DNA from: an uncultured Verrucomicrobia subdivision 3 bacterium
GTDB lineage: Bacteria; Verrucomicrobiota; Verrucomicrobiia; Limisphaerales; UBA11358
Direction: 5' to 3'
Assembly: GCA_903922735.1 (NCBI GenBank)
Contig: CAIXUZ010000011.1
Coordinates: 1 to 64,000 of the forward strand
DNA length: 64,000 bases
In this document: positions 27,717 to 45,597 of the stretch, in pieces
Layout of the letters: the number at the start of each line of letters is the position of its first letter
Position numbering within the stretch: position 1 is the stretch's first letter
Translations under genes and position numbers: made by a program
Notes under the pieces: generated by a model
Told to the model about the DNA's origin: nothing
Databases searched by the model: none
What the model saw: only the letters and a program-made list of their open reading frames with translations

Positions 27717-27899
27717 TTAAGGGCCTGAAATCTTGCTCGCCACCGCCTCAATTTCAGTCTTACCCGCATCCACCAGCCCGCGCAAAAGACCGTGCCGATC
27801 TGCGAAAAACCATACACCCACCCCCGCACCAACACCACCCATAATCAGAAGTTCATTAACCTGGTCCGCGTCCAGTATATGAGCCCGCATACAGAACAA
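27717..27899 (-). pseudogene. Remnant of the membrane lipoprotein gene found at 30702-31379
   Basis: The frame encodes NELLIMGGVGAGVGVWFFAD and then RHGLLRGLV. These align with NELLIMAGVAAAVGLWFLAH and RHGQLRGTV at the C-terminus of the protein at 30702-31379. The start codons in this frame lie within a dispersed repeat (R1), so the 5' part has been replaced. The divergence at DNA level shows that it is an old relative or derives from another element, not a fresh duplication. It is probably not expressed as a functional protein. Confidence 0.6.
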
Positions 27900-27911
27900 T
27901 TTCCTGTCAGT
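27858..27911 (+). repeat. Cassette-boundary repeat R1
   Basis: Contains CCAGTATATGAGCCCGCAT and CAATTTCCTGTCAG. It matches R3 (44249-44303) at about 33 of 40 core positions and R2 and R4 less closely. It lies 17 bases after the stop of the ankyrin gene. Confidence 0.65.
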
Positions 27912-27928
27912 CAGCTTGAGTTGTTGTG

Positions 27929-29578
27929 CTATTGCTTAGTGTCCTTGGCTTTTCTCCTTCTGAGATAAACAACCAAGAAAATTAGTAGCACTCCAAGGAA
28001 CACCGGTATCGTTACGTAACCCCAGAAGAATACAACAGGCTTCCGACTTTGGGGCCAGCTAACCTGGTTCCAAGGGCTGTTGGAATCGGCTTTGTTCAGC
28101 AGCAACCGCTCGATCAAATCATATTTTGCAAAACCAGCCGCACCTTTGAATTCATAACCCACACGGACATTATGGGCAAATTCCTCCCAAGATGAAAACC
28201 GGTCTTGCAACGGTTTGAGTCGGGACGTAATGCGATCCCAGCAATCTTTCTCATTCAAAAAGCCACGAGCACGCCCTAGTTGAAGCAGGTGAATATAGCA
28301 GGAGGCTTCCCATCCCGCTAAATCGCCTTTGCCACCTTGCGCCAGATATTTGCGGACAATCTGGCGTTGCTGCCGCTGATGCGGATCAGAAACCAGCAGG
28401 TCCGCCTGTTCCAGTTCAAATTGCTGGTCGGTTAACTTCCCTACCGCTTTGGCGATCTCGGCAAATTCAGCGCCCGCGGATGAGGACTCAAATTGTTTCA
28501 CCGCTTCCATCATATTCGCTTTGTATTTAACCCCCCAATAACCGGTGAGTTTGGGCTGCAGTTCCATGCCGCGAACATAACTGTTTTGGTTTTCTTCCAG
28601 CTTATTGTAACGAAGGCATTCATCCATCACTTGAAAGGCCGTGAGTGCGTAGGGCCACAGTCGGGAGGTGTTCGTTACTGCGGACAAGTGCAAGTCGCAC
28701 AGATGAATCTCATTGGTGTTTGCACCAAGCTTTGTCAGCCGGTCAATCATGACGGATGATGGGGCATTGGCGGCATATAGTATGGCACTGTTGCCCTCCA
28801 AATCCTTAAGCTGCCAGTCGGCTCCAGCATCCAGCAAAGCTTCGGCAGTCGCGACATGACCGTTCTTCAATGCCTCCAAAAGTGCGGTTCGGCCAGCCTT
28901 GTTGGTCGCGTTTATTTCCGCGCCGGCATTTAGCAGCAGGCGCACTGATTGAAGATTGCCAACAGCTCCAATGAGCACTGTATTGCCGGTTATTATTTCC
29001 CGACTATTGGCATCCACCCCGAAATCGAGGAATTGTTTAAGAGTGCCTTCATCCCGCACCGCATAAAAGATAGCCGGGCCAAATTGTGCTGGTATTTCCA
29101 GGTCTGTTTTTGCAGCAAGCAGCAAGGAAGCCATTTCGCGCTGGTAACCATTGCAGGCCAAAACCAGCGGAGTCTCTCCCCACTTGGTCTGGAGATTGAG
29201 TTTCGCCCCATGCTCAATCAAAGATGCCGCCGCCTTCAGACACCCGTATTCGGCGCAATAGTGGAGGGCGGTGCAGCCATTTTGGTTCGTTGCGTTTATA
29301 TCAACCCCGGCCGCGAGCAGTTTGCCGACATACTCGGCATCATTGTTGTAAGCCAAAGCCAGTAATGGCCAGTTGTGGTTCGTGCCCACGTCGAGAGGGC
29401 CAATTTCGGCTTTATCCACCGCCTCCCGTAATTCGTTCAGAGATTTGCCCCAAGCCTTGGCTAACAGGGTTTCAAGCCGGGCTGAATCCATCCGTTGGAC
29501 TTGGCTATGCCCGATGCCGACAAAACCAACCCAAGCTAGCACTACCAAAGCGGAGATTATTCGGATTTTGTTGCCCAT
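27929..29578 (-). CDS. Exported ankyrin-repeat membrane protein
   Basis: A protein of 549 residues. A signal peptide or N-terminal anchor is seen (IISALVVLAWVGFVGIGHSQ). Ankyrin repeats occupy about residues 65-275, with clear units such as GCTALHYCAEYGCLKAAASL, GETPLVLACNGYQREMASLL and GRTALLEALKNGHVATAEAL. A helical middle part follows. Near the C-terminus is one transmembrane segment (PVFLGVLLIFLVVYL) and a basic tail (RRRKAKDTKQ), so the repeats should face outward with the end in the cytoplasm. It probably binds a protein partner. The start overlaps the 3' end of the DUF4034-like gene by 22 bases, so the two are co-translated and sit in one repeat-bounded cargo block. Confidence 0.8.
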   Translation of the reverse strand: MGNKIRIISALVVLAWVGFVGIGHSQVQRMDSARLETLLAKAWGKSLNELREAVDKAEIGPLDVGTNHNWPLLALAYNNDAEYVGKLLAAGVDINATNQNGCTALHYCAEYGCLKAAASLIEHGAKLNLQTKWGETPLVLACNGYQREMASLLLAAKTDLEIPAQFGPAIFYAVRDEGTLKQFLDFGVDANSREIITGNTVLIGAVGNLQSVRLLLNAGAEINATNKAGRTALLEALKNGHVATAEALLDAGADWQLKDLEGNSAILYAANAPSSVMIDRLTKLGANTNEIHLCDLHLSAVTNTSRLWPYALTAFQVMDECLRYNKLEENQNSYVRGMELQPKLTGYWGVKYKANMMEAVKQFESSSAGAEFAEIAKAVGKLTDQQFELEQADLLVSDPHQRQQRQIVRKYLAQGGKGDLAGWEASCYIHLLQLGRARGFLNEKDCWDRITSRLKPLQDRFSSWEEFAHNVRVGYEFKGAAGFAKYDLIERLLLNKADSNSPWNQVSWPQSRKPVVFFWGYVTIPVFLGVLLIFLVVYLRRRKAKDTKQ

Positions 29579-30561
29579 TGTTTTCGCTGGTTGAATTCAT
29601 TCTGTTGCCAGCACTGGGCATGGCGGTTTGAGCCAATACGGTCAAAGAGTTGCTTGGCCGTGGCACGGTCGCCGGCCAGGCAGGCATACCGGCAATAGTT
29701 GTTGAGATTCCAGTTCGAATTGGGGAAGTCCTGGAGGATCTTTTCAAAGCCAGCCTTCATTTTAGGCCACGAAACTCGGCCTTCGGTAAAAAGCTTGTCC
29801 GGCCAATAAGCGGAATTTACCGACCAGGCACAACGCGTATAAATCTCCGGCCCATGCTTTTCCGCTTCACTTTCCGCAAATGCCTGCCATTCGCCTGCGG
29901 CTCCATACCACCGTGGCAACAACGATTGGACACGCGCAAAATACAGCTCATAATAATCCGGAGCCAGTTTCACTCCCTCATTAAATACCTGATCAAACTT
30001 GGCTTTATCCCATCCTTGCCCCAAACCTACTGTTAGCATCGCATCATACCATTCCGGATCGGCTGAACAGCGGTCTTTCGCTTTTTCCAGCACGTCGTTG
30101 GCTGCGGCCAGACACTTTTTGAACTTTACAGAGCCGTCTTTGGTTATGGTGTTCGCGTATCCGGTTCCGCGAAAGAACCAGCCATAGCTGGTGAGGATTT
30201 TCCCTTCTGCAATGGGGGCGCTGATGGAATCAGGATATTTTGCCTGCCAATCCTTCACCTGCTTTTCTGCCGCCAGAAAACTCGCCGCATCGGAACCTTT
30301 GCAATCAAGGCCACGATAATAGCTGGCCAGCTTCCATCCGCCCTCGGTTATCTTTAGCTTCTTGGTTCGCAATTCATTGCCCATGCGTTCCAATGATTCA
30401 AAATCGCCTTGCCGAAAAAGTTCGCCAACCGCGTCGGAAAACTTTTTCCTTTCATCCGGCCCATCTTTAATTTTAGCGGAGCCGGTAACAGCGGTATTGT
30501 TCTGCGCAGGCAAAACGACCATTGAAACCAACAACAGCGCAAGGGTGAAAGAAGCTTTCAT
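29557..30561 (-). CDS. Exported DUF4034-like protein
   Basis: A protein of 334 residues with an N-terminal signal peptide (LALLLVSMVVLPAQ). The rest is helical with TPR-like spacing and aromatic patches (LYFARVQSLLPRWYGAAGEW, FEKILQDFPNSNWNLNNYCRYACLAGD). This resembles DUF4034, a family of bacterial proteins of unknown function. It overlaps the ankyrin gene by 22 bases and precedes it in the transcript, so the pair is probably a functional unit at the cell envelope. The ATG lies about 80 bases from repeat R2, leaving just enough room for a promoter inside the block. Confidence 0.7.
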   Translation of the reverse strand: MKASFTLALLLVSMVVLPAQNNTAVTGSAKIKDGPDERKKFSDAVGELFRQGDFESLERMGNELRTKKLKITEGGWKLASYYRGLDCKGSDAASFLAAEKQVKDWQAKYPDSISAPIAEGKILTSYGWFFRGTGYANTITKDGSVKFKKCLAAANDVLEKAKDRCSADPEWYDAMLTVGLGQGWDKAKFDQVFNEGVKLAPDYYELYFARVQSLLPRWYGAAGEWQAFAESEAEKHGPEIYTRCAWSVNSAYWPDKLFTEGRVSWPKMKAGFEKILQDFPNSNWNLNNYCRYACLAGDRATAKQLFDRIGSNRHAQCWQQNEFNQRKQWATKSE

Positions 30562-30640
30562 GATTGACCGCGATTAAACTGACCGGCAATTGTAATGTCA
30601 ACCAAAGAGGTTGGTGTTAATGCCTAGGTGTTAAACCTCC

Positions 30641-30693
30641 GCACCCGAGCAGCGTTATGTAAATGAGCCCGCAAGAAGACCTATTTCCTGTCA
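30641..30693 (+). repeat. Cassette-boundary repeat R2
   Basis: Contains CACCCGAGCAGCG, AAATGAGCCCGCA and TATTTCCTGTCA. It lies just downstream of the membrane lipoprotein gene and about 80 bases before the first cargo gene of the ankyrin block. Confidence 0.6.
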
Positions 30694-30701
30694 ATATTTC
30701 A

Positions 30702-31379
30702 CTAACTTACCGGACCGGCCGGCTTTGCCATTCCCGAATCCCCATTCTGCTTCGCCTCCACTGTCCCTCTCAACTGCCCATGCCGATGCGCGAGAAACCA
30801 CAGGCCGACTGCCGCAGCGACGCCGGCCATAATCAGAAGTTCGTTCCCGACGATGACGGTTGGCAAGACGATTAACGCCAGACCACCAACGGTGATAGCG
30901 GCGCTGGTAGTGATGCTGCCGATGAGGACCTTGAGCGGTGGATAAAACATCGTCGCCAGGCCAAACAGGAACACGACCACGCCGACCCACACAATGCCCT
31001 TGAGGCTCGCCAGCTTCGCGCTTAATTCGCGCGCCGTGTCCTTCTGAGCCGCGCCAAGCTCGCTCTTGGCTCGCGTCTCCTCATGTTCGGTCACCGGCAT
31101 CGGCGCGCTGATTAGCAGGACTTGCGAATTCGTCACGGGCGCTCCGCCCTCGGTGACAATTCGCGTTTCCATCAATCGCGAACCGGCTGGCACGGTGTAA
31201 GACTTGGTGCGCACAGTTTCCTGATCCTGCTTGGACACAGCGGCCGGGTTATCGGATTGCACAACGGATTGCTCGATGCGTCCACCCGACTGGCTGGTCG
31301 TGGCCTTGCCGCCTTTCAACGGCGCAATGGTGCAGCCGGTCAAAGCCAACAGGCACAGAATAATGATGATGTTTTTCAT
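30702..31379 (-). CDS. Membrane lipoprotein in the head operon
   Basis: A protein of 225 residues. The N-terminus has a lipoprotein signal with lipobox LTGC (Cys16). An extended polar part follows, then three hydrophobic segments in the C-terminal half (IVWVGVVVFLFGLATMF; ITTSAAITVGGLALIVLPTV; NELLIMAGVAAAVGLWFLA). It could be a holin- or spanin-like envelope protein of the phage module, but no family is recognised. It is the last gene of the minus-strand operon, three bases after the small membrane protein gene. A diverged C-terminal copy survives at 27717-27899. Confidence 0.65.
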   Translation of the reverse strand: MKNIIIILCLLALTGCTIAPLKGGKATTSQSGGRIEQSVVQSDNPAAVSKQDQETVRTKSYTVPAGSRLMETRIVTEGGAPVTNSQVLLISAPMPVTEHEETRAKSELGAAQKDTARELSAKLASLKGIVWVGVVVFLFGLATMFYPPLKVLIGSITTSAAITVGGLALIVLPTVIVGNELLIMAGVAAAVGLWFLAHRHGQLRGTVEAKQNGDSGMAKPAGPVS

Positions 31380-31382
31380 AAA

Positions 31383-31676
31383 TTAAGGGCTTGTTGCGCT
31401 GCCACCTTTCGCGTGTTGATCAAACAGAATACTGATGCGGTCCACCGTGCGCGCCATCACCGCCTGATTTTCAGCGAGTGTCGCCAAACTCTTTTTCATG
31501 TCGCGCCGCTCCTCGATGGAATAACTCTCGCGCAATTCTACGGCGGAAATGCGCTTGTCCATGTTCACCCACAAGCCGATGACCGCCGCCGCGATGGACA
31601 GCAATTGCAGCACGTTCCCCAGCGTGATTTCAGGGATAAACCGGAACTTTTTCAGATTTTGAATTTGCTCGGTCAT
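31383..31676 (-). CDS. Small holin-like membrane protein
   Basis: A protein of 97 residues from ATG 31676, which overlaps the stop of the connector gene as ATGA. The longer upstream frame is a shadow of that gene. One transmembrane segment (about 23-42, NVLQLLSIAAAVIGLWV) is followed by a charged helical region (ERRDMKKSLATLAENQAVMART) likely to form a coiled coil. Size and layout are like many phage proteins annotated near holins. The function is not proven. Confidence 0.6.
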   Translation of the reverse strand: MTEQIQNLKKFRFIPEITLGNVLQLLSIAAAVIGLWVNMDKRISAVELRESYSIEERRDMKKSLATLAENQAVMARTVDRISILFDQHAKGGSATSP

Positions 31677-32512
31677 ACGCGCACAAGTTTGATGGAGCCG
31701 CTCTTGCCTTTGATCAGGATTCCGTATTTCGCCAGCAAAGCCTGGACGACGGCGGGAATTATCGGCCGCGTGTCGGCCTTGTTGTAACCCGTCTGCGAGC
31801 TGCCAACGTTTTGAAAACTCAAACCTTCGCCCGGAGGCGCAGCAGTGCGGTCGGCGATAATAAGTTCCCGCGCCAGCTCGCACGTCGCCTGGACGACGGC
31901 CTGCGGCACCACCGTGACCGCGACCAAGTCGCCCGCGTCCGGGTCAGGACAGTTCTCACGCGGCCATTGCAGTGATTGAGTCGCCACGGCGCGAACGCCG
32001 CTAAACTGGTATTCGGCATCAATCAAACGCGTCGCCATCACCAGCGCGGGGATTTTTTTATCCAGCGGCGCAGCGGTCCACGCCTCCGCATACAAATGCC
32101 CGTCGTGATAAATGTCGCCGTCATCGACGCTGGCGTAGCTGTTCGCGTTCGATAGCCCGGCGCCAGTTTCCTTGACGACGACAATCCCATCCCGCAAAAC
32201 GACCTCAACAACATTCGAGAACGGCCCGGCCGGATCGGAATAATTATTGAACCGCAGTTTGACCTGGTAATGAATCGGATCCGGGCTCGCCGCGCAGAGA
32301 TGCCCAATCGTGAAGGCCCGGGCGGCAAAACCAACCGTGCCCCACTTAGAAAAATCCGCGTCCACAAACACCCGGCGAATCCAGATTTCGGTATCGCCCA
32401 TAGTCTGACCGGTCGCATCCCAGGTGAACACACCACGAATGTCCCAGCGGTCCGCCCAGGTTGCCCCAAAAACGCCGGTGTTGGTTGTAATGATTGGTGC
32501 GTTGATGCTCAT
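31673..32512 (-). CDS. Head-tail connector-like protein
   Basis: A protein of 279 residues from ATG 32512; the ORF reaches 32569. The C-terminal half matches phage head-tail adaptors of the gp6/DnaT-like group: NSYASVDDGDIYHDGHLYAEAW, then ALVMATRLIDAEY, SLQWPRENCPDPD and VPQAVVQATCELARELI. These assemble under the portal to join head and tail. The N-terminal about 130 residues are beta-rich and not recognised, and may be an added domain. The stop overlaps the next start as ATGA. Confidence 0.7.
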   Translation of the reverse strand: MSINAPIITTNTGVFGATWADRWDIRGVFTWDATGQTMGDTEIWIRRVFVDADFSKWGTVGFAARAFTIGHLCAASPDPIHYQVKLRFNNYSDPAGPFSNVVEVVLRDGIVVVKETGAGLSNANSYASVDDGDIYHDGHLYAEAWTAAPLDKKIPALVMATRLIDAEYQFSGVRAVATQSLQWPRENCPDPDAGDLVAVTVVPQAVVQATCELARELIIADRTAAPPGEGLSFQNVGSSQTGYNKADTRPIIPAVVQALLAKYGILIKGKSGSIKLVRV

Positions 32513-32754
32513 GCTTCGACGAGTTCGAGCCGCGTCAGAATGGTTTGCTTGATGGTCTCGTCCGTCCACTGACCGAGCGCGTCATAGTCCGCGCCCTCGA
32601 CGACGATCACCATGGAGTTATTGACGAGGATTTGAAGCCGACGGCTAAAACCATCGTCCACCGTCCGCCACGACAGCGTTGTAAATTCCACCGATCGCGC
32701 CGCGCGGGCCGGCATCACTTCCACATTTTTAGGAACCACATTGATTGCATTCAT
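32509..32754 (-). CDS. Small hypothetical head-operon protein
   Basis: A protein of 81 residues that I do not recognise. It is mixed alpha/beta, acidic towards the C-terminus (DYDALGQWTDETIKQTILTRLELVEA) and lacks membrane segments. The stop overlaps the start of the connector gene as ATGA, which supports it as part of the operon. Confidence 0.6.
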   Translation of the reverse strand: MNAINVVPKNVEVMPARAARSVEFTTLSWRTVDDGFSRRLQILVNNSMVIVVEGADYDALGQWTDETIKQTILTRLELVEA

Positions 32755-32776
32755 ATTTTTTTTGGTTGGGAGAGCG

Positions 32777-32863
32777 TTAAAAATTACTGTAAGCCAGCCC
32801 GCTCCCGTTGTTGTAAAGCTGACTCACATCCGGCACCAACAGCGCAAAAATGGTTTTTTTCAT
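32777..32863 (-). CDS. Possible 28-residue peptide
   Basis: A short frame (MKKTIFALLVPDVSQLYNNG and eight more residues) begins two bases after the stop of the preceding operon gene. The position fits coupled translation, but no ribosome-binding site is visible and there is no known relative, so it may be chance. Confidence 0.3.
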   Translation of the reverse strand: MKKTIFALLVPDVSQLYNNGSGLAYSNF

Positions 32864-32865
32864 GA

Positions 32866-33792
32866 TTAAGCGGGGTGAAGTGTAATTGTGGCGACCTCGA
32901 ATAAATCGTTGTTCTCGCCCACATAACAGAGAGTGTAGGTCCCATTGCCGACCCATTCGGCTGAATGGGAAGTCCCATTCCCTCGATAAATTTCCACTGG
33001 GGTTCCGCCGCTGGAAGCAGTAACCCCCATGACTACAAAGGTTGTATTCCCTCCGGTGTTATCCGTCCATGAAAGCCTGTCCTCAGACACGCCTGCATGA
33101 TAGGTGGTCGAGATTGCCTCAATTGAAATCGTGGGCCCGTTGTTATATCTAAAGTTGTAAGTTCCAGACGGGTCGATGGGATTCCAGAAGTCTGACCAAT
33201 ACATATCCGTGTTATATTGCAAACAGATCTGCCAAACCGGATTTCCGTCATTGTCGTTTGACGGAAATAACCAGTCCCCATATTCATTCCATGCCGAACC
33301 CCCGCTGAATGTATAGGTGCCATTGCCGCCGCTGCCATTGGCCGCAACCACAGTCGAACCGTCGTCAATCGTGGTGTAATCCGGTGAATTGTAATAGGAG
33401 CCGGTAAAATCTTGGGCTGGTGGCGGTTGAGGTGGAGAAGCATCGTCCGGCCGCACAAGGTTGCTGCGCTGCGTGATCTCCTTGCCATTCGCATCCACGC
33501 CAACGATGAAATGAAGTTCGCTGCCACCATCAGGCGCAAACTCTCGGGCGTCACCATTCACCCAATAACCCTCCGGCATGGAAAACGTCCCGCCTTCGTC
33601 CAGACTCATCCAGACGGCCCACTTGTCCGGGTCCGCCAGCTCCCAATCCCATTGCAGCAGGTCAGGATACGCGGCACGAAGCACCGGCGCAGGCAGCAAG
33701 GTGGCCTGTGCGGCACGCACCCGGGCGCGGCGATGATCCTGCGCCCAGAGCGCAAGCCAGGTGCGGCGGTTAATTTTTGTTAGCAACAGCAC
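32866..33792 (-). CDS. Beta-rich hypothetical protein in the head operon
   Basis: A protein of 308 residues without a recognised family. The first about 95 residues contain basic and aromatic segments (RRTWLALWAQDHRRARVRAA; WAVWMSLDEGG). The remaining two thirds are rich in Gly, Asn, Thr and Trp and look like a beta sandwich (TYTFSGGSAWNEYGDWLF; TYNFRYNNGPTISIEAIS). It may be a decoration or fibre-type protein. It lies between the capsid and connector genes, where phages often encode head decoration proteins. Its start overlaps the zinc-ribbon-like gene by 23 bases. Confidence 0.6.
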   Translation of the reverse strand: MLLLTKINRRTWLALWAQDHRRARVRAAQATLLPAPVLRAAYPDLLQWDWELADPDKWAVWMSLDEGGTFSMPEGYWVNGDAREFAPDGGSELHFIVGVDANGKEITQRSNLVRPDDASPPQPPPAQDFTGSYYNSPDYTTIDDGSTVVAANGSGGNGTYTFSGGSAWNEYGDWLFPSNDNDGNPVWQICLQYNTDMYWSDFWNPIDPSGTYNFRYNNGPTISIEAISTTYHAGVSEDRLSWTDNTGGNTTFVVMGVTASSGGTPVEIYRGNGTSHSAEWVGNGTYTLCYVGENNDLFEVATITLHPA

Positions 33793-33991
33793 GCGATTTT
33801 TTCGGTTTGGAAATTTCCACCGGTTTTACTTGGGGGACGTCCGCAAGGACCACCGGAACTTGGGGAACCACCAAAGGCACGACCGGCGGCGGTTCGACGG
33901 CGACGGGATCAGACGCCCGCCGCCCGCAATGCGGACACACAAACGGTTGCCCACGACGTTTGCGCCGGATGGTGGATAAAAGTTGGCTCAT
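33770..33991 (-). CDS. Small CxxC protein in the head operon
   Basis: A protein of 73 residues with one CPHCGRR knuckle (Cys19 and Cys22) in a basic N-terminus, then a Pro/Val-rich stretch and a Lys-rich end. A single CxxC pair is only half a zinc ribbon, so it may pair up as a dimer. The Pro/Val-rich part contains one of the three GTCCGCAAGGAC hairpins at DNA level. It lies 50 bases after the capsid gene and overlaps the following gene. Confidence 0.5.
   Translation of the reverse strand: MSQLLSTIRRKRRGQPFVCPHCGRRASDPVAVEPPPVVPLVVPQVPVVLADVPQVKPVEISKPKKSRAVANKN
33839..33850. repeat. GTCCGCAAGGAC mini-hairpin, copy 1
   Basis: A perfect 4-bp stem with a GCAA tetraloop, located inside the CxxC protein gene, where the opposite strand encodes VLADV. 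Identical 12-mers occur at 36819-36830 and 37496-37507. Confidence 0.5.
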
Positions 33992-34041
33992 AATTTTGAA
34001 GAGCGTCGGCGCACGGATGAAACCATGCGCCGACGCCGTGA

Positions 34042-35055
34042 TCAGACGTTGTGGTCAATCGCCACCATGCGGACGTTCTTCGCCTCGAACACCCGGGTCC
34101 AGTTGGCGACCGTTTCCAATTCCGCGTTGGTCGGACTCACGCCCGCCAGGCTGGAGCTGGTGAACTTCACACCGCGAGGGTGAAGCAGGTAGCGGCGGCG
34201 GTTGATGAAGTTCGTGTCGCTGGCCAACGCGTCCCGCGACCACTCCACGGCCTTCGTGCCGAAACCGCCCTCGACGGGCTCGTTAAGCGTGGCGTTGCCA
34301 CGACCGAAGCAGCCGGGGCCGAACAGGAACGACGTATAGACGTAACCGCTCGTGGTGCCCGCGCGAACGGGGAGGCTGTCGTCAATGATGACGCGCCGGC
34401 CTTGGAACACCTTGACCGTCAGCTTGCCCTCGCTGTCGGGCAGATAATCAATCAAGTCCTGCTTGCGCAGCGCGGCCTCCACGGCCGAATGCACCGCCAG
34501 CGCCGTCAGGTTGTCACTGCAATCGCCGAGCTTCACCGTGGCGTCCACGAAGGTGTCGCCGTTCAGCCGGGTCGCCGCCGCGTAACTGCCCGTCGCCTCG
34601 GCGGCGATCGAGAGCTTGTGCGTCGCCGCCAGCGTGCCGCCCGTGCCGAACAAACCTTTCAGCACCGACATGACATATGCCTGGTCCGTGCGCGCCCAAT
34701 AAGAGCCGACCAGATCGAGCAATGCGTTCAGCGGATCGGAACCCGCCAGCGCACCGGCCAGATCGTTCGCACCCCACGCCTGCGCGTCGTTGTTGAGGAT
34801 GGCGACATCTTTGCTCGCCGTGATTTTGTTCACCGTCAGCGCGCCGCTGTCCGACAGGACTTGCCGCGTGGGCGAAATGTCCTGCCAGAACGGCATGTCA
34901 ATCGTCTTGCCGCCGCCGGCTGCCAAAGCGTCGAAATGCGGATTCAATTCGACGATGCCGCTCTGGATCAAAGCGGACTTGGCCGCCGTGAACTCCATTG
35001 CGTAATTTTCAAACACACTCGGAATGATAATGTCCGAGATCAGGGTCTTTGCCAT
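34042..35055 (-). CDS. Major capsid protein
   Basis: A protein of 337 residues matching the phage major coat protein pattern. It opens with TLISDIIIPSVFENYAMEFT and has IDMPFWQDISPTRQVLSDSG, then DLAGALAGSDPLNALLDLVGSYWARTDQ split across the middle. It closes with RRRYLLHPRGVKFTSSSLAG and NWTRVFEAKNVRMVAID. It should form the icosahedral shell with an HK97-like fold. Order and spacing (portal, scaffold, capsid) are canonical, and the reading frame is intact. No separate protease is evident. Confidence 0.85.
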   Translation of the reverse strand: MAKTLISDIIIPSVFENYAMEFTAAKSALIQSGIVELNPHFDALAAGGGKTIDMPFWQDISPTRQVLSDSGALTVNKITASKDVAILNNDAQAWGANDLAGALAGSDPLNALLDLVGSYWARTDQAYVMSVLKGLFGTGGTLAATHKLSIAAEATGSYAAATRLNGDTFVDATVKLGDCSDNLTALAVHSAVEAALRKQDLIDYLPDSEGKLTVKVFQGRRVIIDDSLPVRAGTTSGYVYTSFLFGPGCFGRGNATLNEPVEGGFGTKAVEWSRDALASDTNFINRRRYLLHPRGVKFTSSSLAGVSPTNAELETVANWTRVFEAKNVRMVAIDHNV

Positions 35056-35147
35056 AATGTTGGTCTTTCTGTTTTTGTAGCGGCGGGTTATTGCCGCCGC
35101 AGATTTTTTGTTTTGTCCCGCGCGTCAGCGCAGTGGCCCTGACGCAG

Positions 35148-35867
35148 TCAGGCCGAAGCTTTCAGCCGGGCCGCCAAGCCCGGATTGGTCTTCAGCAGTT
35201 TCACTTGCTCGGTGAGGTTCCAACTTTCCTTGCGGAACGGATTCACCCCGCCGCTACCGGCCCCACGGGAGCCTGAGCCGGCGGCACCGCCACCAGCATT
35301 TGCTTCAAACAGGTGCGGCGCGTCGGACACCAACGCATCCACCCATTCAGCCAAAGTCAAAGGGGACGTGCCGTCCCGGCCATAGCGGGGCACGTCACCG
35401 TCAAAAGCCTGGGGCACACCACCCACCAGCTTGAAAGTCATGCGGGCGCGGCCGGTGATGTCCGTCAGCGCCGTGGGCCGCAGTCCGCGCTTGGTGGCCT
35501 CGGTCACAACGGCCTGATCAATCAGCAGCGCGGAGAGCCGGCCATTCAGCGCGTCGCGTTCAGCAGCCACGGGACCAACCGCCGCTTTAAGCCGGTCCGC
35601 CAACACTTCCTGAAACTTGCCGTCCTTCAACCGCTGCTCTTCTTCGAGGCGCGCTTTTTCCGCCGTGAGCTGACGCACGGCATCGGGGTCAATGCCTTCA
35701 AACCGTTTGAGCAGCGCGTCGCGCTCCTTCATCACGGTGATGTTCGTCTGGCGCAATTCCTCGTTGCGCTCCGAATCCAGAATCCAAGCACCATCGCGCT
35801 CGACGTAGAACGATTTCAGTTCCGCCGGGATTTCATCGGCCTTCGCATATTTGTTTTTCAGTGCCAT
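35148..35867 (-). CDS. Head scaffold-like protein
   Basis: A protein of 239 residues between the portal and capsid genes, the usual place for a scaffold. Residues about 40-120 are a charged coiled coil (TAEKARLEEEQRLKDG, VLADRLKAAVGPVAAERDA). A Gly/Ser/Ala-rich linker and a C-terminal helix follow (NLTEQVKLLKTNPGLAARLK), the last typical of the part that binds the coat protein. It would guide shell assembly and then leave the head. The gene begins six bases after the portal stop. Confidence 0.7.
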   Translation of the reverse strand: MALKNKYAKADEIPAELKSFYVERDGAWILDSERNEELRQTNITVMKERDALLKRFEGIDPDAVRQLTAEKARLEEEQRLKDGKFQEVLADRLKAAVGPVAAERDALNGRLSALLIDQAVVTEATKRGLRPTALTDITGRARMTFKLVGGVPQAFDGDVPRYGRDGTSPLTLAEWVDALVSDAPHLFEANAGGGAAGSGSRGAGSGGVNPFRKESWNLTEQVKLLKTNPGLAARLKASA

Positions 35868-35873
35868 AATTTT

Positions 35874-37454
35874 TTATTGTTGTAGCGTGCGGCCTGTGGC
35901 CGCACTGGGGTTAGTTGCCAGAGACGTTTTTGCGGCCGGGGTAGTTGGTGCCTGACCGGAAGGTCCATTAGGAAGAACCCCGGTCTGATTCTCTTGACCG
36001 ATTTGGCCAATGAGATGCTTCTCTTCATTGTCTGTTCTGCCTGTGGGCAGGACTTCACCTTTACGGAAGAGATCAAACATGGTGGCCTGACTGATGGCGC
36101 CTGCCTGCCAGGCACCAACAATGGCTGTGAGTTCCAGACTGGTCAGACCTTTGGCCGTGAAATCAGTATTAATCTGGAGCAGCACGAGAGATTCACTGAC
36201 GTCTTCTGGATATTGTTCAGTGCTGTTCCACCAATAAACCCAGCGTAATACTTGCGAAATAGAATCGGACAACGAGATGGCCAGTGTCATCAAAACACTG
36301 TTTTCACCAGCCTGACGCAGTTCAATGGCTTGTGCCGTTTCACCAACACGTTTCGTGTCTTCCAACATCCGGGAACCCAGAACCGCCATGAGCCGTTCGT
36401 CTCTGGTCTGCGCGTTTTCAAAAGTGCTTAGACCAAGTCCTTTGAACTCCAGAAAACCTGCCACCGCACCAACCGTGTCCGACACCCATGCCTCGCTGCT
36501 GCCAATGCGCAATTCAGCATTTTTATCAAAACCGGAAACCCATGCGGTGGGCAGAGCGGTGAAATGCAAACCATGTTTGTAATCGGCATCGAGGCGGTAG
36601 TGATCCAGGTTGACGTAAATGATGTCGCCAAGCGGCATCTTATCCACGTCCGGCAAAGCATTGCGCGAACCATGAAACACGAACGGAATAAACGGCAGTG
36701 GCTGCCCCAAACGAAGTGGCATTCGTGTTTCCACCAATGTCCAGTCGTTCTTGGGTTGGCTGGACTTTTGTCCGAAGAAACCAGACCACAGCGAACCACC
36801 ATTACCACCACGGCGGCCGTCCGCAAGGACCCAGACTTCGACGACATACTGGGTGCCGCCATCGGGCAGCACTTCCAATTTCAATACACGAATGGTTTCA
36901 GTTTGCTTTACAACAAACGGATCATTCGCATCCGGACGTTCCACCAATTCCCGAAGTGCGACCATCGTGACCACGTTGCGCCCATTGATACGTTGCGTCT
37001 GCCAATTCAAAATATCTTCAGCCTGATAGCGCACAACATAAGCGCGAGAATCAACACCACCTTGCCAATCGATCAACGTGCCACACCGACCCACAGCCAG
37101 CACTTCACCAACAACAGCTTTGCAGTAGGTGAAAAGCGACGTGCCCATTAAATCCACATCATCAGTGAACACACGCAGCGCACCACCAACACCGGCATGG
37201 CGGTCGGGAAGTTTTACTTCCGGGTCACGACGAAAAAGTAAACCGAGAAAACCATCCGCCGTGCGACTGGTGGCATTGAAGAAACAGGCGCGAGACTTGT
37301 AACCGAGATATTCGATTTCAGATTGGCACTCCAGACGCGGCAGATATTTAATGTTGCCGGCTTTCACGGCATCCTCGCCGGCGATAACATCACGAGCGCG
37401 CAACCAGGCTGGCAGGTTGGCGTCATAATCAGGATGAGTTGAATTTGCTGGCAT
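35874..37454 (-). CDS. Portal protein (DUF4055-like)
   Basis: A protein of 526 residues. It fits DUF4055-type portal proteins: an N-terminal segment with LECQSEIEYLGYKSRACFFN, TADGFLGLLFRRDPEV and GRCGTLIDW, a middle with PFIPFVFHGS and VNLDHYRLDADYKHGLHFTA, and the C-terminal helical part including LMAVLGSRMLE and TAQAIELRQAGENSVL. The portal forms the ring at the vertex through which DNA is packaged. It is the first head gene. The terminase genes that normally precede it are missing; the upstream 2 kb is repeat-rich and non-coding. Confidence 0.85.
   Translation of the reverse strand: MPANSTHPDYDANLPAWLRARDVIAGEDAVKAGNIKYLPRLECQSEIEYLGYKSRACFFNATSRTADGFLGLLFRRDPEVKLPDRHAGVGGALRVFTDDVDLMGTSLFTYCKAVVGEVLAVGRCGTLIDWQGGVDSRAYVVRYQAEDILNWQTQRINGRNVVTMVALRELVERPDANDPFVVKQTETIRVLKLEVLPDGGTQYVVEVWVLADGRRGGNGGSLWSGFFGQKSSQPKNDWTLVETRMPLRLGQPLPFIPFVFHGSRNALPDVDKMPLGDIIYVNLDHYRLDADYKHGLHFTALPTAWVSGFDKNAELRIGSSEAWVSDTVGAVAGFLEFKGLGLSTFENAQTRDERLMAVLGSRMLEDTKRVGETAQAIELRQAGENSVLMTLAISLSDSISQVLRWVYWWNSTEQYPEDVSESLVLLQINTDFTAKGLTSLELTAIVGAWQAGAISQATMFDLFRKGEVLPTGRTDNEEKHLIGQIGQENQTGVLPNGPSGQAPTTPAAKTSLATNPSAATGRTLQQ
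36819..36830. repeat. GTCCGCAAGGAC mini-hairpin, copy 2
   Basis: Lies inside the portal gene, in a Gly/Arg-rich linker segment (VLADGRRGGNGG). It shares 17 bases (GGCCGTCCGCAAGGACC) with copy 3. Confidence 0.5.
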
Positions 37455-37495
37455 AATCGTTTACGCCAAACAAACCAACCCATCGCACGGTGGCC

Positions 37496-39506: not shown

Positions 39507-39514
39507 ATGGGTAG

Positions 39515-40601: not shown

Positions 40602-40631
40602 TTGTCCACTTTTGCCATCGGCGGAGATAAT
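40602..40631 (+). promoter_or_regulatory. Promoter of the sigma-factor gene (copy 2)
   Basis: TTGTCC, an 18-base spacer and GATAAT, preceded by AAATACTTCAAAATAAA, matching the sequence before 39515. The ATG is six bases after GATAAT, so the message would start at or next to the start codon. Confidence 0.5.
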
Positions 40632-40637
40632 AAGTAG

Positions 40638-42251
40638 ATGCCCGATGCGAACGACATGGATCTGGTGCGGGAATTTGCCCGCAACCATTCCGAGGCGGCC
40701 TTCACCGAACTGGTGCGGCGGCACGTCAACCTCGTGTATTCCATCGCCCGCCGCTGCACCGGCAGCGACAGCGACGCGAAGGACGTGACGCAGGCCGTCT
40801 TTGTCATACTCGCCCGCAAAGCCGCCGGCCTGCGCGCCCGCACCATGCTCACCGGCTGGCTGGCGGAAACCACCCGCTTCACCGCCGCGTGCATGCTGCG
40901 CACCCACGCCCGCCGCCACGCCCGCGAACAGGAGGCTTATATGCAATCCATTTTGACCGATGCCGCCCCCGCCGACGCCTGGACGCGGCTCGCCCCGCAT
41001 CTGGAAGCCGGCATGGCGCAACTGGGCGAACGCGACCGCACGCTGCTGACGCTCCGGTTTTACGCCAACAAAAGCGGGCCGGAAGCGGCGGCGCTGCTGG
41101 GAATTCAAGAAGCGGCCGCCCACAAACGAACCGCCCGCGCGCTGGAAAAGCTTCGGAAATTCTTCAGCCAGCGGGGAATTGAATTATCCGCCGCAACCAT
41201 TGCCGCAGCCGTCGCGGCAAATTCCGTGCAAGCCGCGCCGGCGGGCCTTGCCGCCGCGATCACTGCCGCCGCACTTTCGGGAACCGCCATCACTACCACG
41301 GCATACCTTGCCGCAACCAAAGCCATAGCCATGACTACGATCCAAAAAATTGCCGTGACCGCCGCGCTGGCCGTGAGCGTGGGCGTGGGGATTTATCAAG
41401 CCAAGGAAGCCGCCAAAGCCCGTGCCGATGCCCAGACGCTCCAGCAACAGCAAGCGCCGCTGGCCGAACTAATCCGGCAGATGCAGGCCGAACGTGACAA
41501 GGCGACGAACATGCTGGCGTGGCGCGATGATGAATTGGCTAAATCAAAGGCGAACAACAATGAATTGTTAAGGTTGCGTGGAGAGATAACGCAATTGAAA
41601 GCGAACGAAAACAATGCTTCCGACCAAGCCGCAACTATTTTGCTGGGAAAAGTAAACAAAATCAAACAACGGATTGAAGCAACTCCAGGCGCTAAAATTC
41701 CAGAACTCCATCTGGCCACGGAAGAAGATTGGTTACAGACTGCTGCCAAAAGATTGGATAGTAATATTGATTATCGTCGAGCAATGGCTCACATACGAAC
41801 CTTGGCAAAAGACAAGGTAGCTAGCGAGTTTGGAAAGGCTCTTAATAACTATTTTCAAGAAAACAAAAATCAATTTCCGACCGACATTACACAATTGAAA
41901 CCTTTCTTCAAATCGCCAATGGATGATGCAATTCTGCAAGGATGGGAAATCAAATCAACCGATAATTTTCCCTTGTTCAAGAACGTGGGGAAGTTGATGA
42001 TTACAGAAAATGGTGCCGCGGATTTTGTATTTGATTCAAGGCACGCAGTCGGCGATGGATGGCAATCGCAAAAACATCTTGACTGTGATCCCGAACAGGT
42101 GAGTTTGTTCTCAACTGTCGTTCGGGCCTATGAAGCGGCAAACAATGGAGCCAAATGGAATAGCGGTATTACATCAGAACTTTTGCCTTATGCAAAAACT
42201 CCTGAACAACAAAATGCAATTCAGAATTTGATGACAAGTCAGTCTGACTAA
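40638..42251 (+). CDS. ECF-type sigma factor with membrane-anchored C-terminal extension
   Basis: A protein of 537 residues. Sigma region 2 is at about 12-95 (AAFTELVRRHVNLVYSIARR, DAKDVTQAVFVILARKA) and region 4 at about 125-180 (LGERDRTLLTLRFY, EAAALLGIQEAAAHKRTARA). An Ala-rich linker follows, then a transmembrane segment (about 235-255), a coiled coil and a C-terminal globular part of about 220 residues. This layout, in which a sigma factor appears tethered to the membrane, is known in Verrucomicrobiota/Planctomycetota lineages; the signal is unknown. The same promoter-like sequence occurs upstream of its sigma-less paralogue, which suggests control by the same or a related sigma factor. 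Confidence 0.85.
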   Translation: MPDANDMDLVREFARNHSEAAFTELVRRHVNLVYSIARRCTGSDSDAKDVTQAVFVILARKAAGLRARTMLTGWLAETTRFTAACMLRTHARRHAREQEAYMQSILTDAAPADAWTRLAPHLEAGMAQLGERDRTLLTLRFYANKSGPEAAALLGIQEAAAHKRTARALEKLRKFFSQRGIELSAATIAAAVAANSVQAAPAGLAAAITAAALSGTAITTTAYLAATKAIAMTTIQKIAVTAALAVSVGVGIYQAKEAAKARADAQTLQQQQAPLAELIRQMQAERDKATNMLAWRDDELAKSKANNNELLRLRGEITQLKANENNASDQAATILLGKVNKIKQRIEATPGAKIPELHLATEEDWLQTAAKRLDSNIDYRRAMAHIRTLAKDKVASEFGKALNNYFQENKNQFPTDITQLKPFFKSPMDDAILQGWEIKSTDNFPLFKNVGKLMITENGAADFVFDSRHAVGDGWQSQKHLDCDPEQVSLFSTVVRAYEAANNGAKWNSGITSELLPYAKTPEQQNAIQNLMTSQSD

Positions 42252-42579: not shown

Positions 42580-42777
42580 ATGAAAATATCCGAAGATTTT
42601 AGCGTTACCAAGCTCCTTAAGGGTTCGCTTCTTGGACTGACTGGCCTCGCGCTACTTTGTTGCTGCATTTATATCGGATCCAACAACGGCAGTATGGTGT
42701 TGTGCGGATTCTTGATTTTTGGCGGATTGATTGCTTTTGGATTGGGCGTTCTGATGGTTTGTAGATGTTTTGAATGA
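42580..42777 (+). CDS. Small two-helix membrane protein
   Basis: A protein of 65 residues with two hydrophobic segments (LLGLTGLALLCCCIYIG; MVLCGFLIFGGLIAFGLGVLMVC) joined by a short polar turn. It is Cys-rich within the first helix (CCC). No family is recognised. It lies just before the larger membrane-anchored protein gene on the same strand and may be co-transcribed with it. Confidence 0.5.
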   Translation: MKISEDFSVTKLLKGSLLGLTGLALLCCCIYIGSNNGSMVLCGFLIFGGLIAFGLGVLMVCRCFE

Positions 42778-42795
42778 ACATGAATGTGGCTGTTT

Positions 42796-44232
42796 ATGAA
42801 TATTGAAGAACCGAACCTGACGCCCGCCCAGCCGCCGAGTCGGATCCTTCGCCGCGTGCTGATTTCTGTTGGCGTTCTGGCCCTGCTGCTGGCGCTGTTC
42901 TATGCCGAAGAAAACTGGCGTGGCCAGCGCGCCTGGGAAAACTGCAAACGCGAGCTCGAAACCAAAGGCGTAGTATTGGATTGGAACAAATTTATTCCGC
43001 CACCCGTGCCAGACGACCAGAATTTTTTTAAGGCCTCGAAAATGGGCGTTTGGTTTGTCAGAAGTCAATCAGGACTGACCAATGAATTGACGCGACGGCT
43101 GGACAACGTCGTGGACACGATGGCGAACAACTTGAACGAAGCCTTCGCGGTAAAATACCTGGCGTGGAGCGATCAGTTCGCGCCGGATTTCGATTTGGTT
43201 CGCGAGGCGTTGAAACGTCCTTATGCACGGATGGACGGCGATTATTCAAAGCCACACGAGCAACCGATTCCAAATTTCGTGACCGTCCGAAGCGTGGCGC
43301 AGACGCTCGCGCAGCGGGCGAAATGTGAGTTGCTGCTTGGTCAGCCGGACAAAGCTTTGCAGGACTTGACGCTGTTGCATGATATGTGCCGTTTGCTTGA
43401 GGCCGCGCCGACGGGCAAGCCGATGACATTGGTTTCGGCGATGATCAATGTCGCGGTCACCGGACTTTATGTGTATACGCTCGCCAATGGTTTGGAATCA
43501 CATGCCTGGAAAGAATCGCAACTGGTCGTGCTGCAAAAGCAACTTGCGGAAGTCAATTTGGCCCCCTTTATGATTGGTGCGTTCGCGTGTGAACCGGCTG
43601 GTTCAGTTTCTTGGTTGGAACATTATAAGCCGAGTGAGCTTTTTAATTTGTCGGCGATCGTGACCAGATCAAATCGGCCGGAAACGCTTTGGGATAAAAT
43701 CCGCAGCCTAAAAGGTCGCTGGTGGGATTTTGTCCCGCATGGCTGGATCTGCCAAAACATCGTTCACTACCGGAAAATATCTGATGATATTCATGCCAGT
43801 CTTTTTAACGGAACCGGGTTGGTGACACCAAAGAAAGCTGACCGTGCCGCCCTAATGTTGGAAGAAAAGCTCGATCAACCCGGCCTGTTCGATTCATTGG
43901 CTGCAATCGCCATTCCCAATTTCAGCAAGGCGCTTCAAATATTTGCCTTCAATCAAACCAAAGCCAACGAAGCGCAAATCGTCTGCGCGCTGGAACTTCA
44001 CCGGCTGGCGAACGGCAACTATCCCGACTCGCTCGACGCCTTGGTGCCGAAATTCATCGCCAAATTGCCGCACGACATTATCGGCGGCCAGCCGCTGCAT
44101 TATCACCGCGCGCCGGATGGCAAATTCCTGCTCTACTCCGTCGGCTGGAATGAAACGGACGACAACGGCTCCCCCGGAACCTTGGCGGACGTCAAAAAAG
44201 GCGACTGGGTCTGGCAATATCCATTACAATGA
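42796..44232 (+). CDS. Membrane-anchored hypothetical protein with pseudopilin-like C-terminus
   Basis: A protein of about 478 residues from ATG 42796; an in-frame ATG at 42784 is also possible. One transmembrane segment near the N-terminus (VLISVGVLALLLALFYAEE) precedes a helical extracytoplasmic part. The last about 60 residues read AANGNYPD-like (HRLANGNYPDSLDALVPKFI), then LPHDIIGGQPLHYHRAPDG and YSVGWNETDDNG. This is a pattern frequent in verrucomicrobial proteins and shared with the C-terminal domain of type II pseudopilins. The function is unknown. Confidence 0.75.
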   Translation: MNIEEPNLTPAQPPSRILRRVLISVGVLALLLALFYAEENWRGQRAWENCKRELETKGVVLDWNKFIPPPVPDDQNFFKASKMGVWFVRSQSGLTNELTRRLDNVVDTMANNLNEAFAVKYLAWSDQFAPDFDLVREALKRPYARMDGDYSKPHEQPIPNFVTVRSVAQTLAQRAKCELLLGQPDKALQDLTLLHDMCRLLEAAPTGKPMTLVSAMINVAVTGLYVYTLANGLESHAWKESQLVVLQKQLAEVNLAPFMIGAFACEPAGSVSWLEHYKPSELFNLSAIVTRSNRPETLWDKIRSLKGRWWDFVPHGWICQNIVHYRKISDDIHASLFNGTGLVTPKKADRAALMLEEKLDQPGLFDSLAAIAIPNFSKALQIFAFNQTKANEAQIVCALELHRLANGNYPDSLDALVPKFIAKLPHDIIGGQPLHYHRAPDGKFLLYSVGWNETDDNGSPGTLADVKKGDWVWQYPLQ

Positions 44233-44248
44233 CCTACCCACATCAAAC

Positions 44249-44303
44249 TCACACGCGCACCGTCCAGCAAATGAGCCCGCATGAAAAGCAATTTCCTATC
44301 AGT
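44249..44303 (+). repeat. Cassette-boundary repeat R3
   Basis: Contains CACACGCGCACCG, CCAGCAAATGAGCCCGCAT and CAATTTCCTATCAG. The stop codon of the gene at 44299-45471 falls inside its right edge. Confidence 0.65.
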
Positions 44304-45471
44304 TCAATTTGCCTTTTTCAGTTGATAAAGCCGACTCACGCGGGGGTGCGTTATTAACATCCAGAGAAAATTTGTTCTTTAAGTATGTATTATTTGTCGA
44401 AAAAGCAAAATCATTAGTTGTTTTATATATTACGCAGTCTGCACGTTTTATATCGCTCCTGAAGCGGTAGTCCACAATCACTTTAAGGCTATCACCCTGA
44501 ATCAGGCCTAAAGGTTTTTTAGCATCCTTTATAGACAAAATCTTTCCACTGCCTTGATAACCGACATACCAAATGCCATTATCAATATTCTTTTGAAAAA
44601 AATCAAATTTGAGCGGAAAATTCCAACCTAAAAAGTTTGTTGACTCAGAGACTTCATAATGAAATTTAATTAGATTATCTCCAAAGCCTTTTCTATTTTT
44701 TATTTTTTTACCGCGCAATTCATTAAAATCATCTAAAGAAGCAGCAAAAAGGGAGTCCGAAGTGTATAAATCAACTGATTTAGGAAGCCCAAAGTCATCT
44801 TTGAATAGTATTGTCTTATCAGAATAGGCATAGGCGTCAAATGAGATTGGCAAGTCGCCAACTGGCGGCGGAATAACTCTTCCTTTCTCTTTGAGATATG
44901 TTCCCGAGCAAAATGCGAGCCATGGAAGATTAACCCCCTCATCACCAAACGGGTGCCCTCCTTTTATCGGGCGTATATTTATTTGTATATTTGATTTTGC
45001 AATTTCAAATGGAACAGGAGCCACGCCAAATTTTTCAAAAAATAAATCTGTCGTCTCTTTGGCTGCTGGTTTGATCAATTCACTACTATCAAACACATTA
45101 GTGCCATCATAGTAGCGATGAATTAGAGAGTTTTGCGAGTAGTCGTTGTCAATCCGCCATTCATTTTTTCCGACTACACAAACGATATGAATTGGGTTAT
45201 TTTGAATTGGCCTGTTTGTTTGATCCGATTCAAAGTGAACCGATTCAATTAGAGCAGAGATTTCAACATAACGCTCTGACTCTGCGGCTTCTGTTTTTAT
45301 CGTATGTATTGAAGCCACCAACACCATATACCTCAAATAGACTGCCAATAGATTTTTTGGAGGAGTGAGCCAAAACTCGCCGCCTTGGTTGTAATTCAGA
45401 AATTTCCATGAACTGATCCATGGAGATAAGAGCTCATTTAGCAACGGTAGAATGGTTTTTTTGTTGGTCAT
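44299..45471 (-). CDS. AT-rich hypothetical protein (repeat-bounded cargo)
   Basis: A protein of 390 residues with no recognised family. One hydrophobic stretch occurs near the start (LLAVYLRYMVLVASIHTI), and the rest is soluble and rich in Asn, Lys and aromatic residues. The gene is strikingly AT-rich beside its GC-rich neighbours, which points to recent transfer from a different background. It sits between repeats R4 (about 76 bases before the ATG) and R3 (overlapping the stop), the same arrangement as the ankyrin block. Confidence 0.65.
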   Translation of the reverse strand: MTNKKTILPLLNELLSPWISSWKFLNYNQGGEFWLTPPKNLLAVYLRYMVLVASIHTIKTEAAESERYVEISALIESVHFESDQTNRPIQNNPIHIVCVVGKNEWRIDNDYSQNSLIHRYYDGTNVFDSSELIKPAAKETTDLFFEKFGVAPVPFEIAKSNIQINIRPIKGGHPFGDEGVNLPWLAFCSGTYLKEKGRVIPPPVGDLPISFDAYAYSDKTILFKDDFGLPKSVDLYTSDSLFAASLDDFNELRGKKIKNRKGFGDNLIKFHYEVSESTNFLGWNFPLKFDFFQKNIDNGIWYVGYQGSGKILSIKDAKKPLGLIQGDSLKVIVDYRFRSDIKRADCVIYKTTNDFAFSTNNTYLKNKFSLDVNNAPPRESALSTEKGKLN

Positions 45472-45546
45472 TTACACGCAACCAAACTAATTCATGAAAT
45501 TAAACCTTATGAAGAATGTGGAATTCGTCACCCAAAGTCAAATTTT

Positions 45547-45597
45547 TCACCCGCGCAGCGGCCAGTATATGAGCCCCGCATGAGTCAGTTCTTTACC
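45547..45597 (+). repeat. Cassette-boundary repeat R4
   Basis: Contains CACCCGCGCAGCG and CCAGTATATGAGCCCCGCAT (one extra C). The right part is degenerate. It lies about 76 bases upstream of the cargo gene at 44299-45471. Confidence 0.55.

What the first reader, a model, noticed from the sequence alone, without database searches (positions are those of the whole stretch)
27858..45597. Two cargo blocks each bracketed by a direct repeat of about 50 bp: a possible gene-cassette system
Four copies (R1 27858, R2 30641, R3 44249, R4 45547) share CCAGTATATGAGCCCGCAT-like and CAATTTCCTGTCAG-like parts in the same orientation. R1/R2 flank the ankyrin and DUF4034-like genes; R3/R4 flank the AT-rich 390-residue gene. 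In both blocks the first start codon lies about 76-80 bases from the outer repeat, and the last stop lies within about 20 bases of, or inside, the other repeat. Promoter, gene and boundary thus form a unit, much like a cassette, but the repeats are not recognisable attC sites. The different base composition of the second block supports independent arrival.
Basis: partly seen in the sequence, partly recalled or inferred. Interest (0 to 1): 0.75.

Follow-up and report, generated by a model that had tools for sequence, protein, structure and literature searches.

The report
Integron-like gene cassettes with unknown repeats
A group of uncultured freshwater bacteria carries genes, many for breaking down sugars, as mostly one-gene cassettes lined up between copies of a 55-letter DNA tag that does not look like a known gene-shuffling site, which hints at a gene-capture system separate from the integron.

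Summary
Confirmed, and larger than the window. R1-R4 belong to a sharply bounded 55-bp repeat with 37 collected copies in this genome and 100 in six congeneric MAGs (Limisphaerales). Of 55 neighbouring pairs, all 50 lying 5 kb apart or less are co-oriented (256-4352 bp). The intervals mostly hold one gene, in either orientation, so R is not a promoter. Eleven of 43 cassette proteins scanned are glycan-degrading.

Cassettes differ in place between species. One 2.1-kb heparinase cassette lies in unrelated surroundings in two species, its homology ending at its two Rs. The gene beside it in one species is followed by another cassette in the other. A 15.7-kb array is absent from the same backbone site here. 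Some arrays begin with a conserved ~78-bp leader.

The window's copies lie inside a ~20-kb prophage-like element in tRNA-Pro. R does not resemble attC or dif. An integron integrase passes its cut-off in one of seven R-bearing genomes, on a contig without R. No recombinase could be linked to R; several enzyme classes were not tested.

Best reading: integron-like cassettes exchanged by site-specific recombination at R, enzyme unknown. Architecture and changed cassette order are shown; the mechanism is inferred.

The parts
27858..27912 (+). R1, 55-bp repeat with a degenerate 5' end
   Evidence: E 1.1e-12
30642..30696 (+). R2
   Evidence: E 1.1e-12
44250..44304 (+). R3, closest of the four to the consensus
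   Evidence: E 2.3e-17
45548..45583 (+). R4, 3'-truncated copy
   Evidence: E 3.9e-8, model positions 3-38
27929..29578 (-). cargo gene, block 1: ankyrin repeats plus DUF1266 (549 aa)
29557..30561 (-). cargo gene, block 1: DUF4034 (334 aa)
44299..45471 (-). cargo gene, block 2: 390 aa, no Pfam family at E<=0.001, AT-rich
42784..44232 (+). 482-aa gene ending just left of R3; 31% identical to the gene that ends left of R at G000:C3:20473
40638..42251 (+). sigma-70-type gene left of the 482-aa gene; the G000:C3 cassette also has a sigma gene before the related gene
27549..27573 (.). left copy of the tRNA-Pro 3' end, left end of the prophage-like element
47438..47462 (.). right copy, inside tRNA-Pro (47440-47517, minus)
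45881..47365 (-). tyrosine integrase (494 aa) of the element
31673..37454 (-). phage head genes: head-tail adaptor, major head protein, scaffold, portal
30702..31379 (-). 225-aa protein, lipoprotein-like by my reading, right of R2; relatives lie on several other R-bearing stretches
27765..27857 (-). second, partial copy (73% identity) of the end of the 225-aa gene, abutting R1
   Evidence: D3

Best explanation
R is the recombination site of an integron-like gene-cassette system. Shown: mostly single-gene units lie between directly repeated, co-oriented 55-bp sites; units and a whole array differ in place between related species with breaks at or near R; some arrays begin with a conserved ~78-bp leader fused to the first R. 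Inferred: a recombinase acting in trans on double-stranded R excises a cassette between two Rs and re-inserts it at another R or at a leader-R. The crossover is probably in the lineage-variable centre of R, between a conserved 5' arm (CACCCGCGCAGCG) and 3' arm (AAAAGCAATTTCCTATCAGT). The window shows two cassette blocks inside a tRNA-Pro prophage-like element, which could carry them between cells.
For: 50 of 50 neighbouring pairs <=5 kb apart are co-oriented although the genes between them are not (37 with R, 23 against, ORFs >=120 aa). Clustering: 17 close pairs in G000 against 1.45 expected. Same 2.1-kb cassette, 91% identical, in unrelated surroundings in G000 and G003, homology from base 6 of one R to base 57 of the next. 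The gene left of it in G003 is followed by a different cassette in G000. A 15.7-kb array in G003 is absent from the syntenic G000 site. Leader: 17 places in the fetched stretches, 16 beside R. Genome-specific consensus.
Against: No enzyme linked to R; serine, DDE, HUH and IS110-type enzymes untested. 27 of 100 copies are solitary. At the heparinase junctions the middle of both R pairs is poorly conserved, so no crossover point can be read (my comparison of the sequences). Truncated Rs break at several points. In G002 the insert between ctaA and ctaB has R on one side only. In the G003/G000 array comparison both sides carry unique DNA, so it is not a clean empty site. No circles were seen; read data were not available.
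Confidence: 0.6

Rival explanations
1. R is one end of, or the whole of, a small mobile element moved by a transposase (one-ended or tandem-targeting, as in IS91/ISCR or Helitron-like elements). Co-oriented arrays arise because each new insertion lands beside an older R and carries the adjacent gene along.
For: 27 of 100 copies are solitary; the G002 insertion between ctaA and ctaB has R on one side only; a shared stretch in two contigs starts at the left edge of R; copies look like independent decay from one master per genome, with little linkage inside R.
Against: The one cassette compared between two species has its homology ending at R on both sides. No terminal inverted repeats in R. HUH and DDE enzymes were not looked for.
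Confidence: 0.2
2. R is an old dispersed repeat and cassettes are moved by ordinary homologous recombination between R copies.
For: Recombination between direct repeats would keep orientation; R copies are similar within a genome; no dedicated enzyme found.
Against: 55 bp of imperfectly matching sequence is short for RecA-type recombination (recalled knowledge); it does not explain how mostly single genes came to lie between Rs.
Confidence: 0.13
3. R is a regulatory or RNA element placed between the genes of sugar-degradation clusters.
For: Some plus-strand ORFs start at an ATG inside R (6 of 51 plus ORFs); cargo is rich in glycan enzymes.
Against: R keeps its orientation while genes turn; no conserved RNA structure; no Rfam match at R in the window at gathering thresholds.
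Confidence: 0.04
4. R arrays are integron cassette arrays with odd attC sites.
For: Array logic alike; G000 encodes one integron integrase above its curated cut-off (C49:1127-2050) and G016 a below-cut-off fragment (C152, 101 bits).
Against: 0 of 100 copies show an attC core pair, though the control stretches also gave 0 and only 95 bases around each R were looked at. 11 of 12 single-strand folds are unremarkable; one strand of the G310 site is matched by 7 of 200 shuffles. Above cut-off, IntI is in 1 of 7 R-bearing genomes, and no R was listed on its contig.
Confidence: 0.03

Closest known systems
Integrons / chromosomal superintegrons and CALINs (IntI, attI, attC; recalled)
   Same: Arrays of mostly one-gene cassettes separated by directly repeated, genome-specific sites; a leader-type site at the start of some arrays; cassettes differ between relatives.
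   Different: R shows no attC core pair or conserved hairpin; IntI above cut-off in only 1 of 7 R-bearing genomes and not near R; genes in both orientations; intervals up to 4.35 kb; glycan-enzyme cargo.
dif (pdif) modules of Acinetobacter plasmids (listing and abstract starts only)
   Same: Modules bounded by short double-stranded recombination sites, without an own recombinase.
   Different: R has no similarity to the E. coli dif site beyond shuffles and is 55 bp; arrays here are chromosomal and all close pairs are direct repeats.
IS91/ISCR and Helitron-like one-ended transposition (recalled)
   Same: Co-oriented element ends with different adjacent genes.
   Different: The one cassette compared between two species has R at both ends; the enzyme class was not looked for, so the comparison is open.

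Membership tests
Integron | integron integrase (IntI) present and linked to the array | tested here: not met
   TIGR02249 above cut-off in 1 of 7 R-bearing genomes, on a contig with no R listed
Integron | attC sites: RYYYAAC/GTTRRRY core pair and folded single strand (motifs recalled) | tested here: not met
   0 of 100 copies with a core pair within 95 bases, control also 0; no conserved fold; 12 strand folds, z -1.70 to +1.42
Integron | array of direct-repeat sites with mostly single-gene cassettes | tested here: met
   50 of 50 close pairs co-oriented; 50 intervals, mostly one ORF
Integron | primary site (attI) with promoter at the array start | tested here: inconclusive
   ~78-bp leader at the start of 7 of 23 arrays; promoter function not tested
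Integron | excision and integration of circular cassettes | not testable with these tools
   needs reads or an assay
dif module (XerCD) | 28-bp dif-like site | tested here: not met
dif module (XerCD) | XerC and XerD present | tested here: inconclusive
   two recombinase families common to G003, G005 and G016, Xer-type by my inference; R-free relatives have similar high-scoring hits
Transposable element / MITE | terminal inverted repeats | tested here: not met
   no pairing in 25 copies, 5 weak pairs in 11 diverse copies
Transposable element / MITE | target-site duplication and a matching transposase | not tested
   no clean empty site; transposase families not searched
Integrated prophage-like element (host of R1-R4) | integrase beside a tRNA, duplicated tRNA end, phage structural genes | tested here: met
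   no terminase or tail family among the 9 ORFs searched, so completeness is open

The most novel reading that the evidence does not exclude
A gene-capture and shuffling system separate from integrons: a still unknown recombinase works on a short, unfolded double-stranded site, turns genes such as glycan-degrading enzymes into mostly one-gene cassettes in either orientation, stores them in arrays with a leader site, and moves them between loci, species and prophages in Limisphaerales.
Probability: 0.5. Interest if true: 0.92.

Novelty: new variant of a known kind. Interest (0 to 1): 0.77.

Why it matters
Integrons are the textbook cassette-array system of bacteria. A second array system with an unrelated, unfolded site would suggest that gene stockpiling and shuffling evolved more than once, and would offer a route by which freshwater Verrucomicrobiota build and exchange polysaccharide-degrading repertoires gene by gene. 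The sites, leader and flanks are defined well enough here for direct tests: a search for circular cassettes, or recombination assays in laboratory strains.

Tried and rejected
RNA element: RNAalifold found no pairs over 25 copies and 5 weak ones over 11 diverse copies; of 12 DNA folds none was extreme (z -1.70 to +1.42; the lowest, a G310 copy, was matched by 7 of 200 shuffles). Coding role of R: open frames exist, but the column conservation shows no codon pattern (my reading). Replication-oriented motif: copies more than 5 kb apart share orientation in 2 of 5 pairs. Dedicated tyrosine recombinase: all PF00589 hits of G003 (6), G005 (4) and G016 (8) were compared, and only two families, Xer-type by my inference, are common to all three. 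The integrase 2 kb from one leader-R (G000:C15) does not track R: at 49% identity or more over most of its length it is in 6 of 49 genus genomes, of which only G000 and G005 are R-rich, plus a fragment in G040; it has no match at E<=1e-20 in G002, G016 and G018 and only 27% in G003. Crossover by linkage inside R: no signal in G000; in G003 one of six segment pairs reached p=0.01 and the odd/even column split p=0.048; in G016 plus G018 the odd/even split reached p=0.016. Leader as a second R: in 14 of 15 leaders the best match is to R bases ~33-48, but each score lies within its own shuffle range or at its upper edge, so this stays a suggestion. A second split ctaA-ctaB case in G005 looked like a general rearrangement. 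Phage and plasmid records: no match to one leader-R query. IMG/VR: no exact match to one degenerate R pattern. Papers: eight searches, listings and abstract starts only, no paper opened; nothing listed describes such repeats in Verrucomicrobiota; most subscription journals and all preprints are outside the library.
Full report
OBSERVATION. Aligning 25 copies from this genome shows information content falling off sharply at both ends of a ~55-bp unit, consensus TCACCCGCGCMGCGTCCAGTAAATGAGCCCGCATGAAAAGCAATTTCCTATCAGT. R4 lacks its 3' third and R1 has a degenerate 5' end. A 19-base core has 16 places in the genome (<=3 mismatches) against 1 for the reversed control; a sequence-only model finds 38 at E<=0.01.

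CONTEXT IN THE WINDOW. tRNA-Pro (47440-47517, minus) has its 3' end duplicated at 27549-27573. An integrase sits beside the tRNA (45881-47365), and portal, scaffold, major head protein and head-tail adaptor genes lie at 31.7-37.5 kb. The finding therefore lies inside a ~20-kb prophage-like element. Relatives of its 225-aa gene lie on R-bearing stretches at G000:C52, G005:C6, G002:C25, G002:C187 and G003:C57 (the last two partial), with short fragments at G000:C44 and G003:C129; relatives of its head genes are at G005:C6 (portal, scaffold, head protein, adaptor) and G000:C52 (adaptor). Only fetched, mostly R-centred stretches were compared, so this does not show that the association is exclusive. 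A partial copy of the 225-aa gene also abuts R1.

DISTRIBUTION. R is in 9 of 49 genus genomes at E<=1e-4, six of them with 7 or more copies. Named contigs of the same numbers and lengths identify four R-bearing genomes as 'uncultured Verrucomicrobia subdivision 3' MAGs; one further hit lies in a MAG labelled Lentisphaerae. Subdivision 3 is Limisphaerales. At class level, with stricter filters, 4 of 384 sampled genomes match at E<=1e-5: three in this genus and G310 of another family. G310 has two full copies with the conserved arms and a different centre; one is preceded by a leader-like stretch by eye, which the leader profile did not report. An exact degenerate pattern found 0 viral contigs; phage and plasmid collections gave no match to one leader-R query.

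ARCHITECTURE. I collected 100 copies at E<=1e-3 from stretches fetched around search hits in six genomes: G000 37, G003 22, G016 13, G002 11, G018 10, G005 7. Consensus sequences differ between genomes. 73 copies fall into 23 arrays of 2 to 10 and 27 are solitary. Of 55 neighbouring pairs, the 50 that are <=5 kb apart are all co-oriented, spaced 256-4352 bp; of the 5 farther pairs 2 are co-oriented. In G000, 17 close pairs compare with 1.45 expected by random placement. The 50 intervals mostly hold one long ORF; among ORFs >=120 aa (mechanical calls), 37 run with R and 23 against it. A promoter or UTR would turn with its gene.

CARGO. Of these 60 ORFs I scanned 43 against Pfam: 3 and 40. Of the 40, 27 have a family at E<=1e-5. 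Eleven are glycan-degrading: heparinase II/III, GH26, GH28, alpha-L-fucosidase, GH31, GH116, GH106, GH2, GH120, bacterial alpha-L-rhamnosidase and a pectate-lyase-like protein. A PfkB kinase, a D-lyxose isomerase and a xylose-isomerase-like protein come besides. Others include an S1 nuclease, a PIN domain, a sigma factor, a Rieske/desaturase fusion and DUFs; 13 of the 40 have no family. The window's cargo is nearly private: the 390-aa protein has only weak partial matches in 2 other genus genomes, the DUF4034 protein a best identity of 34% in another genome. Homologues of the 390-aa protein exist more widely (best 54%); one is named Pedosphaera sp..

EVIDENCE OF MOVEMENT. (1) A 2.1-kb heparinase cassette is 91% identical in G000:C32 and G003:C136; homology runs from base 6 of the left R to base 57 of the right R, and no other protein is shared between the two fetched surroundings. 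The two genomes are 88.5-94% identical over syntenic backbone, so the cassette may be as old as their split but sits elsewhere. (2) The gene left of it in G003 is found in G000:C56 (88%). There it is followed by an R remnant (TTTACCCGC), a thioredoxin-like cassette and another R (the thioredoxin-like label is my reading of the sequence). (3) G003:C100 carries a 15.7-kb stretch with seven Rs between blocks that in G000:C11 are separated by 1.1 kb of unrelated DNA. Both sides carry unique DNA, so this is presence/absence, not a clean empty site. (4) In G002 a leader-R plus a 497-aa gene lies between two genes that I recognise as ctaA and ctaB (no family search). Of 29 relatives' loci fetched, 24 have the second gene within 400 bp of the first; in 5 it was not in the fetched stretch. 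The right boundary there is not an R. (5) Contig G003:C129 and the end of the Lentisphaerae-labelled contig share 141 identical bases starting at the left edge of R, with different left flanks. I take this as an assembly-graph branch, i.e. alternative neighbours (141 is a common assembler word length, recalled), but mis-binning or chimerism is possible. R is far shorter than such words, so the arrays are unlikely to be assembly artefacts (inference).

LEADER. A conserved ~78-bp sequence precedes R in 15 of the 100 copies. A profile of these 15 finds 17 places in 1.04 Mb of fetched sequence, 16 of them next to R; the 15 are among them by construction. Seven of the 23 arrays begin with one; in three of these the second R has one too, and the other five are solitary Rs. 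The place without a detected R, G002:C143, has the leader followed by only the first ~18 bases of R, then a cassette and a full R. No integrase or other common gene was seen upstream of the leaders (ORF listing by eye).

SITE. Across lineages the 5' and 3' arms stay nearly constant while the centre differs. Truncated copies break at various points, several near bases 15-22 (G002:C143, G005:C121, G000:C20, G016:C19), others not (G000:C32 near 30, G000:C56 near 7, window R4 near 30). A crossover in the centre is therefore suggested, not shown.

ENZYME. All ten genomes searched have tyrosine recombinases. Among G003, G005 and G016, only two families, Xer-type by inference, are common to all three. 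High-scoring hits of that kind also occur in the four R-free relatives, so Xer alone would not explain the distribution. Integron integrase above cut-off is in 1 of 7 R-bearing genomes. Serine, DDE, HUH and IS110-type enzymes were not tested. The MAGs are incomplete and G000 is listed with 5.6% contamination; copies on long syntenic contigs (C11, C100) argue that R belongs to the organism.

VERDICT. A cassette-array architecture and changed cassette order between species are supported by tests that could have failed. It works like an integron but fails the tests made for integron membership, and does not resemble dif modules. The recombination mechanism and the enzyme remain open. I rate it a new variant of a known kind (cassette arrays), with an even chance that it is a separate kind.

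Noticed in passing
G000:C49:1127-2050 (L160): A full-length integron integrase above the curated cut-off (423.5 bits), followed by a stretch of 21-bp tandem repeats; no R on that contig.
   Followed up: partly
G310:C88:1939-1980 (L158): A partial R (E 0.011) lies inside an ORF whose start I recognise as infC (translation initiation factor IF-3), as if R had landed in or captured part of it.
   Followed up: no
window 39515-39769 and 41331-41585: A 255-bp direct repeat (75%) inside a TPR gene and a sigma-factor gene, which share a similar membrane/coiled stretch.
   Followed up: no
window 27549-47462: The prophage-like element has portal, scaffold, head and adaptor genes, but no terminase or tail family was seen among the 9 ORFs searched; it may be a remnant or satellite.
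   Followed up: partly
G000:C11:64261-65377 (L148): Where G003 has its array, G000 has a fragment that reads like a PocR-type sensory domain (my recognition, no family search).
   Followed up: no
Lentisphaerae-labelled MAG contig CAITZM010000052.1 (L082, L109): One R at the very end of a 169-kb contig, sharing 141 identical bases with G003:C129; cross-phylum copy, mis-binning or chimera.
   Followed up: partly
G000:C56:3770, G000:C3:23452, G000:C52:98326, G061:C288:26250: A recurring stretch TTATTGAAGAAATCGTTGAAGG beside R copies, to the right of R in some and to the left in others.
   Followed up: no
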